Shown piece by piece: positions 1,073-4,746 of a stretch of DNA of 17,735 bases. Position numbers and translations under genes: made by a program. Positions within the stretch are counted from its first letter, which is position 1. Each line of letters begins with the position of its first letter. Origin of the DNA: an uncultured Eubacteriales bacterium (GTDB lineage: Bacteria > Bacillota > Clostridia > Christensenellales > Christensenellaceae); NCBI GenBank assembly GCA_900545085.1, contig UQXU01000033.1, positions 1-17,735 of the forward strand. Reading direction: 5' to 3'. Under the pieces are notes generated by a model, which had not been told where the DNA came from, searched no databases, and worked only from the letters and a program-made list of their open reading frames with translations.

Positions 1073-1106
1073 TTGACTTTTTTGGAGTGTAATGATAAAC
1101 TATAAT
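1073..1106 (+). promoter_or_regulatory. SigA-type promoter of the T-box / ligase / symporter operon
   Basis: A TTGACT -35 box (1073-1078) is followed after 17 nt by TAAACT (1096-1101), preceded by TGA, which makes an extended -10. A second -10-like TATAAT lies at 1101-1106 but is 22 nt from the -35 box. Transcription would begin near 1108, just ahead of T-box Stem I. Confidence 0.6.
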
Positions 1107-1130
1107 ATAAATAGCATTTAATATAAATGC

Positions 1131-1410
1131 ATTGACCGAAAAGAAGTAGGCATTTAGATGCGCTGTTCAGAGAACCGCCGGGTGGTGCGAGGCGGGAGTT
1201 GCCTTTATGCCGAATACATTTCGTGAGCAGCGCACCAAACCGCGCGTAAGCGCGCAGTAGGCTGCGACGGGAGCGCCCGTTATAGCGCTGGGGCATCGTT
1301 TGGCTTTGCTGGGCTGTGCTTTTTGAGGCTGCGTTTGTGAGAACGCAGTGAATATGAGGTGGTAACACGGTACTTCCGTCCTCTGTCCGTATGCGACAGA
1401 GGATTTTTTG
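1131..1410 (+). ncRNA. T-box riboswitch, specifier UAC (tyrosine)
   Basis: The hallmarks of a T-box leader are visible. In Stem I, CGAAA (1137-1141) pairs with TTTCG (1219-1223) below the specifier loop, and GGCAT (1149-1153) pairs with ATGCC (1207-1211) above it. The 5' side of the loop carries the conserved AGTA (1145-1148); the 3' side reads GAA-UAC-A (1212-1218), giving a Tyr codon followed by a purine. The distal hairpin CCGCC/GGCGG (1175-1179/1191-1195) has the loop GGGTGGTGCGA, with AGAGA before it, and TGAG follows the specifier side. Stem III is CTGCGTT/AACGCAG (1329-1348). The T-box sequence AGGTGGTAACACGG (1357-1370) has UGGU (1360-1363), complementary to ACCA, which fits a tRNA with discriminator A such as tRNA-Tyr. 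The terminator is CCTCTGTC/GACAGAGG (1380-1387/1395-1402) plus six T. Uncharged tRNA-Tyr should favour antitermination, so the operon would be on in tyrosine shortage. Confidence 0.9.
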
Positions 1411-1491
1411 TTTTTAACCGAAAAAACGGCAGGCCGGGTCTAAAGCTTTATCTATCGCTTAAATTAGGAAGAGAAACAGAAGGGAAAAGAC

Positions 1492-3123
1492 ATGATAATA
1501 ACTGATTTGCTGAAAAGAAATGCCGAGCTTTATCCTGAGGAGGTGTGCCTGGTTGAGATAAACCCAGAGGCGCAGCCGAGGCCGGTTACGTGGTCAGAAT
1601 ACGAACTTATAGAATCCAGCAGATATGAGGGCTTCCGCGATGAGATAACGTGGAAGGAGTTTGACAAGAGAGCAAATAGATTTGCAAATCTGCTGCTGAC
1701 GCGCGGTATAAAAAAAGGCGATAAAGTGGCCATACTCCTTATGAATTGTCTGGAATGGCTGCCTATATATTTTGGCGTGCTCCGCACGGGTGCGGTTGTA
1801 GTGCCGATGAATTACAGATATACCGGAGAAGAGATAAAATATTGTCTCGATCTCGCAGAGGCGAACACGCTTGTTTTCGGCCCGGAATTTGTAGGAAGAG
1901 TAGAATCTGTATTCAACAGACTGCGCAAGATTAAGAATTTCTTCTATGTAGGCGATGATATTCCTACATTTGCAGACAGCTATGACGAGCTGACTACATA
2001 CTGCTCCGACTCGCAGCCGAAGATCAGCTTAACAGAGGACGATGACGCGGCGATCTATTTTTCGTCAGGCACGACGGGCTTCCCGAAGGCGATATTGCAT
2101 GCGCACAGAGCGTTATACTCATCTTGTCTGACAGAGCAGAAGCATCATGGACAAACGCGCAGCGATACGTTTTTATGCATTCCTCCGCTGTACCATACGG
2201 GCGCGAAGATGCACTGGTTCGGGAGTCTGCTTTCTGCGAGCAAGGCTGTGATACTGAGAGGCACAAAGCCGGAGTGGATACTCGATACTGTTTCGAAAGA
2301 GAGATGCACGGTTGTTTGGCTGCTGGTGCCTTGGGCGCAGGATATACTCGATGCGATAGACAGGGGAGACATAAACCTCGATGATTACGAGCTGGAACAA
2401 TGGAGATTAATGCATATAGGAGCCCAGCCCGTTCCGCCGAGTTTAATAGAAAGATGGAAAAAGGTGTTCCCTCATCATGAATACGACACTAACTACGGTC
2501 TCAGCGAGTCCATAGGCCCGGGTTGTGTGCATCTTGGCGTAGAGAATATTCATAAAGTAGGCGCGATAGGCGTCCCGGGTTATCTATGGGAGGCTGATAT
2601 AGTAGACGAAAATGGAACGGCTGTACCAAATGGAGAGGTCGGAGAGCTCATAGTCAAAGGCCCGGGCGTGATGAAATGCTATTATAATAATGAAAAAGCT
2701 ACAGCAGAAAGTCTCAAAGGCGGCTGGCTCTACACGGGAGATATGGCTCGGATGGACGAGGACGGCTTTATATATCTGGTAGACAGAAAGAAAGATGTAA
2801 TAATCAGCGGAGGCGAAAACATATATCCTGTTCAGGTTGAAGATTTTCTCCGCAAGCACGATGCTATAAAAGACTGCGCAGTTATAGGCCTGCCGGATAA
2901 GAGGCTGGGCGAGATTGCGGCGGCGATTATAGAGATAAAGCAGGGCGCTGAGTGTACGGAGGAAGAGATAGAGGATTTTGTACTAGACCTTCCGAGATAT
3001 AAGCGTCCGAGAAAGATAATATTCGATGAGATACCGCGAAACCCAACGGGTAAGATAGAGAAGCCGGTGCTGCGCGAGAGATACAGGGCAGAGCGTCTGG
3101 TAGAAGCGCAGACGACGAAATAA
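1492..3123 (+). CDS. AMP-forming acyl/aryl-CoA ligase (ANL superfamily)
   Basis: The enzyme should activate a carboxylic acid with ATP to an acyl-adenylate and transfer it to CoA. The 543 residues are full length for class I adenylate-forming ligases. Visible motifs are the P-loop YFSSGTTGFPKA (189-200), YGLSES (335-340), GWLYTGD (411-417), the hinge DRKKDVIISGGENIYP (431-446) and PRNPTGKIEK with the catalytic Lys521. It is not of the shorter PaaK type. Residues 33-53 hold an insert that makes the first core motif look doubled (TWSEYE, then TWKEFD). It is the first gene after the tyrosine T-box and lies 36 nt before the symporter, so both should be induced by tyrosine starvation. Substrate is not determined by these motifs; context suggests an aryl acid such as 4-hydroxyphenylacetate. 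A generic fatty-acid or carnitine-type ligase remains possible. A GAAGGGA-like ribosome site precedes the ATG. Confidence 0.9.
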   Translation: MIITDLLKRNAELYPEEVCLVEINPEAQPRPVTWSEYELIESSRYEGFRDEITWKEFDKRANRFANLLLTRGIKKGDKVAILLMNCLEWLPIYFGVLRTGAVVVPMNYRYTGEEIKYCLDLAEANTLVFGPEFVGRVESVFNRLRKIKNFFYVGDDIPTFADSYDELTTYCSDSQPKISLTEDDDAAIYFSSGTTGFPKAILHAHRALYSSCLTEQKHHGQTRSDTFLCIPPLYHTGAKMHWFGSLLSASKAVILRGTKPEWILDTVSKERCTVVWLLVPWAQDILDAIDRGDINLDDYELEQWRLMHIGAQPVPPSLIERWKKVFPHHEYDTNYGLSESIGPGCVHLGVENIHKVGAIGVPGYLWEADIVDENGTAVPNGEVGELIVKGPGVMKCYYNNEKATAESLKGGWLYTGDMARMDEDGFIYLVDRKKDVIISGGENIYPVQVEDFLRKHDAIKDCAVIGLPDKRLGEIAAAIIEIKQGAECTEEEIEDFVLDLPRYKRPRKIIFDEIPRNPTGKIEKPVLRERYRAERLVEAQTTK

Positions 3124-3159
3124 AGTGTACAAAAAATATAAAAGGGGAATCAAGTAAAA

Positions 3160-4704
3160 ATGGCGCTCAAGATAATATTGCTGGTAGTGTTTTTCGGAAT
3201 AATGATCGGCGTGGGAATATACTGCCGCCGACATGCTACCGACGTAAACGGTTTTGTATTGGGAGGACGCTCGGTAGGCCCGTGGCTTACGGCGTTTGCA
3301 TATGGTACGTCATACTTTTCAGCAGTAATATTCATAGGATATGCAGGTCAGTTTGGCTGGAAGTACGGCATAGCCTCCACATGGATAGGAATAGGGAACG
3401 CAGTGATAGGTTCCTTTCTCGCGTGGACTGTGCTCGGCAGAAGAACAAGGCTGCTGACTCAGAAGCTGAAAACGGCGACTATGCCTGACTTTTTCCACAA
3501 GCGCTTTGACAGCAAATCGCTGAAAATAGGCGCGGCGATAATTATATTTATATTCTTAATACCGTACACGGCGTCGCTGTATAACGGATTATCCAGATTG
3601 TTTGGCATGGCGTTCAATATAGACTACATAGTTTGCATAATAGCCATGGCAGCGCTGACGGGGATATACGTAATAGCAGGAGGATACGTCGCGACGGCGA
3701 TAAACGATTTCATACAGGGCATAATAATGATAGTCGGCATAGTTGCGGTGATAGGCGCGATACTGAGTGTGAACGGCGGTCTTGTAGGCTCTATGGCAGC
3801 TCTGGCTCAGGTGAGCGACCCTGAAGTATCGGATACGCCGGGCATATTTGCCTCGTTTTTCGGCCCGGACCCTTTGAATCTGCTGGGTGTGGTAATCCTC
3901 ACTTCGCTCGGAACGTGGGGCCTTCCGCAGATGGTGCAGAAGTTCTATTCTATTAAGAGCGAGAAAAGCATAAATAAGGGTACGGCTATATCTACTCTGT
4001 TCGCTATTGTAGTGGCAGGCGGATGCTATTTCCTCGGGGGCTTCGGACGTGCGTTTACAACGACGGAGGCCGTCGCAGAAGGCGGATTTGACTCCATAAT
4101 TCCTACTATGATGTCAACCTTGCCGGATTTGCTGCTGGCGATAGTAGTTATACTTGTTCTATCTGCGTCCATGTCTACTCTTTCGTCACTCGTTTTGGCG
4201 TCCAGCTCGACTGTCACTTTGGACCTCATAAGAGGAAATATTGTGAAGAACATGAACGAGAAAAAGACTCTGCTCAGCGTAAGAGTGCTTATAGTAATTT
4301 TTATAGCTATCTCTGCCGTAATTGCAATAGTACAGTACAAGAGCAGCGTCACGTTTATAGCGCAGCTTATGGGAATATCGTGGGGCGCTCTCGCGGGTGC
4401 GTTTCTGGCGCCGTTCCTTTACGGCTTATATTGGAAGCGGACGACTAAGACGGCTTGCTGGGTAAGTTTCATATTCGGCGTGGGCGTTATGACTCTTAAC
4501 ATGCTGTGCAAGTCGGTATTCCCTGCTATCTTGCAATCTCCGATAAACTGCGGTGCATTTGCAATGATTGCGGGTTTGATAATAGTACCTGTGGTCAGTT
4601 TGTTTACTAAGGCTCCGGATAGAGCAGCTGTAGATGATATGTTCTCGATTTACGACGAAAAGGTACTTGTTCCTGCGAAGGAAGCACTTGGAGAAGATGA
4701 TTGA
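3160..4704 (+). CDS. Sodium:solute symporter (SSS family)
   Basis: This 514-residue, highly hydrophobic protein should import a solute with sodium across the cytoplasmic membrane. About 13 membrane segments can be drawn, the first at residues 3-21. Family signatures are GGRSVGPWLTAFAYGTSYFSA (35-55), IAGGYVATAINDFIQGIIMI (172-191) and the Ser/Thr-rich LSASMSTLSSLVLASSS (334-350), the region that supplies sodium-binding hydroxyls in this family. SSS members carry amino acids, sugars, acetate, phenylacetate or pantothenate. The ATG at 3160 has an AAAGGGGA site. The gene is co-directional with the ligase, 36 nt downstream, and followed by a strong terminator, so it belongs to the T-box operon. 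Since its partner activates carboxylates, a carboxylic acid is the likeliest substrate. Tyrosine itself cannot be excluded. Confidence 0.88.
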   Translation: MALKIILLVVFFGIMIGVGIYCRRHATDVNGFVLGGRSVGPWLTAFAYGTSYFSAVIFIGYAGQFGWKYGIASTWIGIGNAVIGSFLAWTVLGRRTRLLTQKLKTATMPDFFHKRFDSKSLKIGAAIIIFIFLIPYTASLYNGLSRLFGMAFNIDYIVCIIAMAALTGIYVIAGGYVATAINDFIQGIIMIVGIVAVIGAILSVNGGLVGSMAALAQVSDPEVSDTPGIFASFFGPDPLNLLGVVILTSLGTWGLPQMVQKFYSIKSEKSINKGTAISTLFAIVVAGGCYFLGGFGRAFTTTEAVAEGGFDSIIPTMMSTLPDLLLAIVVILVLSASMSTLSSLVLASSSTVTLDLIRGNIVKNMNEKKTLLSVRVLIVIFIAISAVIAIVQYKSSVTFIAQLMGISWGALAGAFLAPFLYGLYWKRTTKTACWVSFIFGVGVMTLNMLCKSVFPAILQSPINCGAFAMIAGLIIVPVVSLFTKAPDRAAVDDMFSIYDEKVLVPAKEALGEDD

Positions 4705-4711
4705 TTATGCG

Positions 4712-4746
4712 AAAAGCAGGCGCTTAAATTATGCGCCTGCTTTTTT
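4712..4746 (+). terminator. Strong terminator of the T-box operon, probably bidirectional
   Basis: AAAAGCAGGCGC (4712-4723) pairs with GCGCCTGCTTTT (4733-4744) across a 9-nt loop, ending in a run of six T. Read from the other strand the stem is followed by only four T, so it may also stop the convergent lipoprotein transcript, whose stop codon lies at 4762-4764. Confidence 0.9.

What the first reader, a model, noticed from the sequence alone, without database searches (positions are those of the whole stretch)
1092..4746. Tyrosine T-box controlling a CoA ligase and a symporter: candidate aryl-acid-to-tyrosine salvage operon
Seen: a complete T-box leader with specifier UAC, a UGGU acceptor-pairing site, and then an AMP-forming ligase and an SSS symporter in one transcription unit with a terminator. 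Known: T-boxes with a Tyr specifier normally precede tyrosyl-tRNA synthetase, tyrosine/prephenate synthesis or tyrosine transport. SSS proteins include phenylacetate and acetate permeases. Some anaerobes and methanogens make aromatic amino acids from arylacetates by CoA activation and reductive carboxylation with indolepyruvate:ferredoxin oxidoreductase. Inference: when charged tRNA-Tyr runs low the cell imports a phenolic acid (for example 4-hydroxyphenylacetate) and activates it, so that the 2-oxoacid and tyrosine can be formed. This would be an uncommon T-box target and links a ligase of unknown substrate to a specific amino acid.
Basis: partly seen in the sequence, partly recalled or inferred. 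Interest (0 to 1): 0.82.

Follow-up and report, generated by a model that had tools for sequence, protein, structure and literature searches.

The report
Tyrosine RNA switch for aryl-acid salvage
An RNA switch that senses shortage of tyrosine controls an enzyme and a transporter that most likely let gut and rumen Clostridia rebuild tyrosine from 4-hydroxyphenylacetate, a waste product of tyrosine fermentation.

Summary
Window 1123-1386 is a T-box leader (RF00230, 98.5 bits) with specifier UAC and a terminator, heading an AMP-forming acyl-CoA ligase and an SSS symporter. The inference gains strong comparative support. iorA lies within 6 kb of the ligase in 20 of 80 related loci and within 5 kb in 13 of 44 ligase genomes from an evenly drawn sample, including an operon T-box-SSS-ligase-iorA-iorB-paaK. 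In that sample 41 of 44 ligase carriers have IorA against 31 of 54 others. Full T-boxes head the ligase unit in 19 of 80 loci and 14 of 44 genomes; all 33 distinct ones, window included, read UAC, against 2 of 20 other T-boxes of relatives, both at tyrosine genes. A tyrosine-starvation switch on acid activation plus indolepyruvate:ferredoxin oxidoreductase implies biosynthesis: 4-hydroxyphenylacetate to its CoA ester to 4-hydroxyphenylpyruvate to tyrosine. Not shown: both proteins' substrates and iorAB in the window's own genome. Most relatives keep tyrA (44 of 50), so this is salvage. No held paper contains both 'T-box' and 'indolepyruvate'.

The parts
1073..1101 (+). candidate sigma-70 promoter (TTGACT, 17 nt, TAAACT)
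   Evidence: consensus scan only, not clearly enriched over shuffles
1123..1386 (+). T-box leader RNA (RF00230)
   Evidence: Rfam 98.5 bits, E 5e-21; nhmmer profile of relatives 212.5 bits (the window itself is in that profile)
1215..1217 (+). specifier triplet UAC (tyrosine)
   Evidence: cmscan alignment; invariant in the 18-sequence alignment; same triplet in 33 of 33 ligase-linked T-boxes by a fixed rule
1355..1383 (+). antiterminator stem with UGGU acceptor-pairing bulge (1360-1363)
   Evidence: cmscan alignment; fold
1378..1414 (+). intrinsic terminator (stem 1378-1404 and T tail) competing with the antiterminator
   Evidence: scan; fold of 1378-1404 -15.3 kcal/mol, z -5.11
1492..3123 (+). 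AMP-forming acyl-CoA ligase, 543 aa; proposed 4-hydroxyphenylacetate-CoA ligase
   Evidence: Pfam PF00501 and PF13193; conserved family linked to iorAB in relatives; substrate inferred
3160..4704 (+). SSS-family sodium:solute symporter, 514 aa; proposed importer of the aryl acid
   Evidence: PF00474; TIGR00813 188.7 bits, over its cut-off of 184; same family within 6 kb of the ligase in 29 of 80 loci; substrate inferred
4711..4745 (+). operon-end intrinsic terminator
   Evidence: fold of 4706-4746 -22 kcal/mol, z -5.30

Best explanation
This is a tyrosine-specific T-box operon for salvage of an aryl acid into tyrosine. When uncharged tRNA-Tyr builds up, its anticodon pairs with UAC at 1215-1217 and its free ACCA end pairs with the UGGU bulge. 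The antiterminator forms and the ligase-symporter mRNA is made. The symporter brings in 4-hydroxyphenylacetate (or a close aryl acid) and the ligase spends ATP to make its CoA ester. IorAB, encoded next to the ligase in many relatives, reductively carboxylates the ester to 4-hydroxyphenylpyruvate, and an aminotransferase gives tyrosine. Shown by computation: the T-box, its Tyr specifier, the gene order, and the recurrent linkage of this ligase family with Tyr T-boxes, this symporter family, iorAB, paaK and, rarely, an aminotransferase. Inferred: tRNA response, substrate identities, direction of flux, and presence of iorAB in the window's own genome.
For: T-box and UAC. In 80 loci carrying the ligase (70-76% identity), T-boxes were sought by motif in all 80, by Rfam in part of them and by a nucleotide profile in all 80: 19 of 80 have a full T-box at the head of the unit (in L060 an LRR protein gene lies between T-box and ligase), 15 over Rfam's gathering score and 4 below it (82.3-92.1 bits); L061 has one cut by the contig end and L015 a remnant without stem I. 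In 98 class genomes drawn evenly, 44 carry the ligase and 14 of those have such a T-box: 13 found, all 13 matching RF00230 (12 over gathering), plus G006, which is L023. Specifier UAC by one rule in 33 of 33 distinct T-boxes, window included; among 20 other T-boxes of relatives the rule fired in 1 (L085, tyrS by eye) plus 1 after strand correction (L081), with a PDH_N (tyrA) hit 1.1 kb downstream. iorA lies within 6 kb in 20 of 80 loci, iorB in 16, paaK in 10, aminotransferase in 2. The L027 products are over the cut-offs of TIGR03336 (IOR_alpha, 710.6 bits) and NF005325 (indolepyruvate oxidoreductase beta, 294.2); TIGR03334 (IOR_beta) is just missed (198.6 of 205.8). T-box, ligase and iorA lie in this order on one strand in 8 cases: L007, L038, G056, G064, G103, G120, G127, G128. 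Co-occurrence: 41 of 44 ligase genomes have IorA (E up to 1e-100) against 31 of 54 others, Fisher p 6e-5 (kinship not corrected). On the ligase tree the T-box trait needs at least 14 changes, and T-box members group with iorAB-linked ones (L032 with L042 and L053; L019 and L023 with L028). PMC13285125 (abstract, passages, section 2.8 and Discussion read) reports that the AMP-forming ligase beside IOR in Bacteroides is an arylacetate-CoA ligase and suggests the biosynthetic direction there.
Against: 61 of 80 loci and 30 of 44 sampled genomes show no full T-box at the ligase (some have little upstream sequence). 35 of 80 loci show none of T-box, SSS or iorA nearby (before L060 and L079 were added; several contigs are short). 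Three of 44 ligase genomes (G070, G095, G138) lack an IorA hit at E 1e-100, and two of these carry the Tyr T-box (G070, G095). Two of the 17 T-box genomes searched (G005, G007) have only weak hits; MAG incompleteness may explain it. The window's genome is not held, so its iorAB is unseen. By sequence the ligase is nearest FadD5, FadD13, a fatty-acyl-CoA synthase and feruloyl-CoA synthetase among solved structures, and its best curated profile is a fatty-acid ligase (below cut-off), which does not fix a substrate. The symporter's best curated profile is PutP (below cut-off). No assay exists.
Confidence: 0.77

Rival explanations
1. The ligase is a broad arylacetate-CoA ligase feeding all three aromatic amino acids through IorAB, and the Tyr T-box merely uses tyrosine as the signal for the set; the main substrate could be phenylacetate or indoleacetate.
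For: In PMC13285125 (section 2.8, Discussion) a C. difficile ligase takes phenyl-, hydroxyphenyl- and indoleacetate, and known IORs act on all three arylpyruvates. paaK sits within 6 kb in 10 of 80 loci.
Against: All 33 ligase-linked T-boxes read UAC. A second, different ligase (PaaK; BLASTP 25% over 189 aa) in the same clusters suggests a split of substrates.
Confidence: 0.3
2. The symporter is a tyrosine or aromatic amino acid importer rather than an aryl-acid importer; only the ligase belongs to the salvage path.
For: Tyr T-boxes are known on transporters (NhaC family, PMC2494555 passages). NCBIfam ranks the symporter nearest PutP (205.7 bits) and far from ActP (31-47 bits), all under the equivalog or subfamily cut-offs.
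Against: SSS of this family and iorA are both within 6 kb of the ligase in 10 loci. In L080 and L035 the place after the ligase holds an MFS protein instead, whose best models on L080 are lactate and oxalate/formate carriers (all below cut-off; L035 by 40% identity), which points to a carboxylate.
Confidence: 0.3
3. The ligase serves another acid (fatty acid, p-coumarate, 4-hydroxyphenylpropionate) in catabolism or lipid metabolism and its link to tyrosine is indirect.
For: Its best curated profile is long-chain-fatty-acid--CoA ligase PRK06187 (434.4 bits, below its cut-off of 476). 35 of 80 loci have none of T-box, SSS or iorA nearby.
Against: A catabolic gene would hardly be switched on by lack of tyrosine; recurrent iorAB neighbours and co-occurrence; UAC in 33 of 33.
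Confidence: 0.07
4. The T-box and the ligase are a chance neighbourhood.
For: T-boxes are common: 3-29 matches per genome in 17 relatives.
Against: Assuming 9 T-boxes per 2.3 Mb, one within 450 nt upstream on the same strand is expected at about 0.0009 per locus; 18 or more of 80 has p about 3e-38 under independence (kinship not corrected).
Confidence: 0.01

Closest known systems
T-box leaders with Tyr specifier (tyrS, tyrosine biosynthesis operons, NhaC-type transporters; PMC2494555, passages read)
   Same: Same RNA architecture, UAC specifier, UGGU acceptor site, terminator/antiterminator switch.
   Different: The target is an acid:CoA ligase and an SSS symporter. Passages of PMC2494555 list T-box transporter families as ABC, APC, DAACS, LIVCS, MFS, NHAC and NSS, not SSS; its main text holds no 'acyl-CoA', 'phenylacet' or 'indolepyruvate'.
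Arylacetate-to-aromatic-amino-acid synthesis through IOR in methanogens and, proposed, Bacteroides (PMC13285125, Discussion read)
   Same: AMP-forming ligase beside iorAB; reductive carboxylation of arylacetyl-CoA.
   Different: In these Clostridia the ligase is not a PaaK (25% over 189 aa to the L027 paaK product) and is often under a Tyr T-box, which gives one amino acid specificity and a direction. Which ligase family the Bacteroides enzyme belongs to was not checked.
Oxidative tyrosine fermentation in C. scatologenes and C. difficile (HpdDEFG, HpdJ, HpdK; PMC13285125)
   Same: Same intermediates between tyrosine and 4-hydroxyphenylacetate.
   Different: Opposite direction; uses phosphotransacylase and kinase, or ADP-forming ligase, not an AMP-forming ligase under a starvation switch.
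Rumen bacteria making phenylalanine from phenylacetate (Allison 1965, seen only as a citation in PMC7356843; other classic papers recalled)
   Same: Aryl acid salvage in anaerobic gut bacteria; by their record titles many loci here come from rumen or gut MAGs.
   Different: That work is physiology; here genes and regulation are proposed for the tyrosine branch.

Membership tests
T-box leader (RF00230) | covariance-model score over gathering score | tested here: met
   98.5 bits against 93
T-box leader (RF00230) | specifier triplet in stem I | tested here: met
   UAC at 1215-1217, invariant in 18 aligned T-boxes and in 33 of 33; its match to the downstream function is inference
T-box leader (RF00230) | UGGN antiterminator bulge and competing terminator | tested here: met
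   UGGU 1360-1363; terminator z -5.11, antiterminator z -0.33
T-box leader (RF00230) | response to uncharged tRNA-Tyr | not testable with these tools
   needs in vitro antitermination or a reporter
Class I adenylate-forming acyl-CoA ligase | PF00501 and PF13193 domains over gathering | tested here: met
   248.9 and 50.6 bits
PaaK-type phenylacetate-CoA ligase (TIGR02155) | score over the PaaK cut-off (646.3 bits) | tested here: not met
   the ligase's best NCBIfam match of any kind is 434.4 bits and TIGR02155 is not among the 25 shown of 108; BLASTP to the L027 paaK product 25% over 189 aa
SSS sodium:solute symporter | TIGR00813 over cut-off | tested here: met
   188.7 against 184
SSS acetate-type permeases (ActP-like) | ActP models over cut-off | tested here: not met
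   31.2-46.9 bits against cut-offs of 750 and more
IorAB-dependent aryl-acid salvage pathway | ligase, iorA, iorB and aminotransferase encoded together | tested here: inconclusive
   window shows ligase and symporter only; in relatives iorA 20, iorB 16, aminotransferase 2 of 80 loci; all four together in L024
IorAB-dependent aryl-acid salvage pathway | iorAB in the same genome | not testable with these tools
   no genome held for the window; IorA over cut-off in 44 of 50 relatives' genomes
IorAB-dependent aryl-acid salvage pathway | ligase activity on 4-hydroxyphenylacetate | not testable with these tools
   needs an enzyme assay

The most novel reading that the evidence does not exclude
A widespread RNA-controlled cross-feeding loop: tyrosine fermenters release 4-hydroxyphenylacetate, and many gut and rumen Clostridia take it back into tyrosine by running the Stickland step in reverse, switched on by uncharged tRNA-Tyr. 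It would be one case of a general plan in which amino-acid-specific T-boxes drive acid:CoA ligases (a T-box that reads GUA, Val, sits before another acyl-CoA ligase in Angelakisella massiliensis, L100), so the specifier codon tells the substrate of an otherwise unassignable ligase.
Probability: 0.4. Interest if true: 0.85.

Novelty: new variant of a known kind. Interest (0 to 1): 0.72.

Why it matters
AMP-forming ligases are among the hardest enzymes to assign. Here an RNA codon reading ties a whole Clostridia ligase family to one amino acid and gives the direction of a reversible pathway that is usually drawn as tyrosine degradation. It offers candidate genes for the old observation that rumen anaerobes build aromatic amino acids from aryl acids, and bears on how much 4-hydroxyphenylacetate (precursor of p-cresol) gut bacteria consume. 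Two named species, Angelakisella massiliensis (L023) and Sporomusa silvacetica (L076), carry Tyr T-box plus ligase and would allow a test.

Tried and rejected
Missing tyrA as the reason for salvage: rejected, PF02153 over the cut-off in 44 of 50 relatives. A Trp T-box on iorAB in Sporomusa (L112): the leader is likely real (84.5 bits, below the gathering score of 93), but the triplet could be UGG or AUG, and its UGGU does not fit the G discriminator of three tRNA-Trp genes fetched and read by eye; left open. Val T-box ligase in Angelakisella (L100): a larger stretch was fetched to look for a VOR next door; none was recognised by eye among the open frames listed (no profile search was run on them). 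No structure prediction was run, because a fold match would not tell the substrate. Literature: ten searches; 'T-box' with 'indolepyruvate' gave 0 papers, also 'T-box' with 'reductive carboxylation' and 'CoA ligase', 'T-box' with 'indolepyruvate' and 'phenylacetate-CoA ligase'. Vitreschak 2008 and Gutierrez-Preciado 2009 are not held, and the additional files of PMC2494555 and PMC3766115, which list T-box regulons, were not readable here; so an earlier listing of this target cannot be excluded.
Full report
1. What is in the window. At gathering scores Rfam finds one RNA family in 17,735 bases, a full-length T-box leader at 1123-1386 + (98.5 bits, gathering 93, E 5e-21). The stem-I specifier loop reads GAA-UAC-A with UAC at 1215-1217, and the antiterminator carries UGGU at 1360-1363, which fits a tRNA with discriminator A (as tRNA-Tyr; recalled). 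The terminator 1378-1404 folds at -15.3 kcal/mol (z -5.11); its 5' strand overlaps the 3' strand of the antiterminator, which alone is not unusually stable (z -0.33). Downstream lie a 543-aa AMP-binding ligase (PF00501, PF13193), 36 nt, a 514-aa SSF symporter (PF00474; TIGR00813 over cut-off), and a strong terminator (fold of 4706-4746, z -5.30). Upstream is a frame with a LysR substrate-binding domain, open at the window edge (1-690); downstream, on the other strand, a 368-aa frame without a Pfam match and a two-component system. The window's whole genome is not held.

2. The ligase family. By their titles they are mostly Clostridia MAGs, many from rumen or gut (a few titles name other groups, such as a planctomycete and a Syntrophorhabdaceae bacterium), with named strains such as Angelakisella massiliensis, Sporomusa silvacetica and Ruminiclostridium hungatei. 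Neighbours within the fetched flanks (up to 6 kb, many contigs shorter) were assigned by clustering and tblastn: SSS of this family (40% identity or more) in 29 of 80, iorA in 20, iorB in 16, paaK in 10, a PLP aminotransferase in 2 (L024, L063), an MFS carrier in 2 (L035, L080). NCBIfam on L027 products: TIGR03336 IOR_alpha 710.6 bits (cut-off 650.9); indolepyruvate oxidoreductase beta NF005325 294.2 (230), while TIGR03334 IOR_beta is just missed (198.6 of 205.8); PaaK 529 (below its cut-off of 646.3). The L024 aminotransferase matches aminotransferase models below their cut-offs. The order SSS-ligase-iorA-iorB-paaK is seen whole in L007 and L027 (the L027 SSS is in the cluster but not in the list), and ligase-SSS-iorA-iorB-paaK in L028, L042, L053 and L056. 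L024 reads ligase-iorA-iorB-aminotransferase.

3. T-boxes at the ligase. A motif search found 15 of 80; Rfam added L007 and L038, where the T-box precedes SSS-ligase-iorA, and supported the rest. A nucleotide profile of the 18 T-boxes then known, run over all 80 loci, added L079 and L060 (Rfam 91.5 and 86.8 bits); in L060 a BspA-type LRR protein gene lies between T-box and ligase. Total: 19 of 80 full T-boxes, 15 over the gathering score. L061 has only the 3' part at a contig end, and L015 a short antiterminator/terminator remnant without stem I. Not all 80 were run through Rfam, and 61 of 80 have no full T-box.

4. A sample not chosen by neighbourhood. Of 98 genomes drawn evenly from the class of G006, 44 carry the ligase (E up to 1e-100) and 72 carry IorA. 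Ligase carriers have IorA in 41 of 44, others in 31 of 54 (Fisher p 6e-5; kinship not corrected). In 13 of the 44, iorA lies within 5 kb of the ligase by the printed coordinates (G056, G057, G058, G064, G065, G072, G073, G101, G103, G120, G124, G127, G128; G073 and G124 on the other strand). Upstream stretches were fetched for 43 of the 44 (four gave only 61-821 bases because the contig ends; the 44th, G006, is L023). The profile found 13 T-boxes, and Rfam matched 13 of 13, 12 over gathering (for G128 the longer stretch L201 was used). With L023 that is 14 of 44. Two of the three ligase genomes without IorA (G070, G095) are among these 14, which counts against the model unless their genomes are incomplete.

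5. Specifier. One rule (AA, optional A or T, TAC, then 5-8 bases, then GAG, AAG, TAG or TAA) matched 33 of 33 ligase-linked T-boxes, window included. The rule looks for TAC, so a control was run on 20 other T-boxes: those of the 30 loci issued that are not at the ligase (19), and L112. One of 20 matched at first (L085, before a tyrosyl-tRNA synthetase, recognised by eye). Two of the 20 had been read on the wrong strand; corrected, L081 also matches and L092 does not, so 2 of 20. L081 in Sporomusa precedes a frame that I recognise as DAHP synthase (by eye), with a prephenate dehydrogenase hit 1.1 kb downstream. So both control hits are at tyrosine genes.

6. Evolution. In a tree of the 81 ligases (quick IQ-TREE; 20 of 78 inner branches open) the T-box trait (18 rows as known then) needs at least 14 changes, SSS linkage 11 and iorA linkage 14. 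T-box members and iorAB-linked members sit together in several groups (L032 with L042 and L053, support 90; L019 and L023 with L028, 98). The same ligase has thus met the same codon again and again, or lost it often.

7. Mechanism. IorAB-type enzymes interconvert arylpyruvates and arylacetyl-CoA and are proposed to run in reverse in methanogens; AMP-forming ligases favour CoA-ester formation (both PMC13285125, Discussion). A T-box switches genes on when the amino acid is lacking. Together these favour the biosynthetic direction, and the UAC codon picks tyrosine, hence 4-hydroxyphenylacetate as the acid. This step is inference: no assay was possible. The symporter's substrate is less certain; its nearest curated profile is PutP (205.7 bits, under cut-off) and the nearest solved structures are sodium/glucose carriers. 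PF02153 (tyrA) is over the cut-off in 44 of 50 relatives, so the path adds to de novo synthesis.

8. Known or new. T-boxes, Tyr specifiers, IOR and arylacetate ligases are all known. The combination was not found in the held library ('T-box' with 'indolepyruvate', 0 papers). PMC2494555 (passages only) mentions Tyr T-boxes at tyrS, tyrosine biosynthesis in the B. cereus group and NhaC carriers. PMC3766115 (passages only) has no hit in its main text for tyrosine, phenylacet-, indolepyruvate, CoA ligase or symporter; its regulon tables are in additional files that I could not read. PMC13285125 suggests biosynthetic IOR in Bacteroides with an AMP-forming arylacetate ligase but has no 'T-box'. PMC7356843 (passages) cites phenylalanine from phenylacetate in the rumen. 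Two key T-box surveys are not held. I rate it a new variant: a known switch on what looks like a new kind of target, which reveals the direction of a known reversible path.

Noticed in passing
L100 (Angelakisella massiliensis, G006 C6 1966907-1967168): A T-box (123.4 bits) whose specifier reads GUA (Val) precedes another AMP-forming acyl-CoA ligase, distant (22-28% identity) from the one studied; it could be a valine-from-isobutyrate salvage gene. No VOR gene was recognised by eye next to it.
   Followed up: partly
L112 / L152 (Sporomusa silvacetica, G017 C110): A T-box (84.5 bits) lies directly before iorA-iorB-paaK without the ligase; the specifier could be UGG or AUG, and its UGGU does not fit the G discriminator of three tRNA-Trp genes read.
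   Followed up: partly
L098 / L153 (Sporomusa silvacetica, G017 C109): A T-box leader (130.7 bits) with two antiterminator-like motifs 67 bases apart precedes a frame that looks like an SSS symporter (by eye); the specifier reads UUC (Phe) or GUU (Val) depending on spacing, so perhaps a phenylacetate or phenylalanine carrier.
   Followed up: partly
L015:5926-5980: Remnant of a T-box before ligase-SSS-iorA: antiterminator/terminator part only, directly after a promoter-like sequence, no stem I seen; possibly a decayed or tRNA-independent leader.
   Followed up: no
L060:669-3698: Tyr T-box followed by an 880-aa BspA-type LRR protein gene (lipoprotein-like start) before the ligase.
   Followed up: partly
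G128 C15 (L179, L201): Unit Tyr T-box - SSS - an extra gene with an amidohydrolase-like start (recognised by eye) - ligase - iorA.
   Followed up: no
window:10397-12506: Pantothenate gene set panB-panC-panD on the + strand.
   Followed up: no
window:14063-17366: PAS-SpoIIE phosphatase, CdaA-type diadenylate cyclase and YbbR-like protein genes in a row.
   Followed up: no
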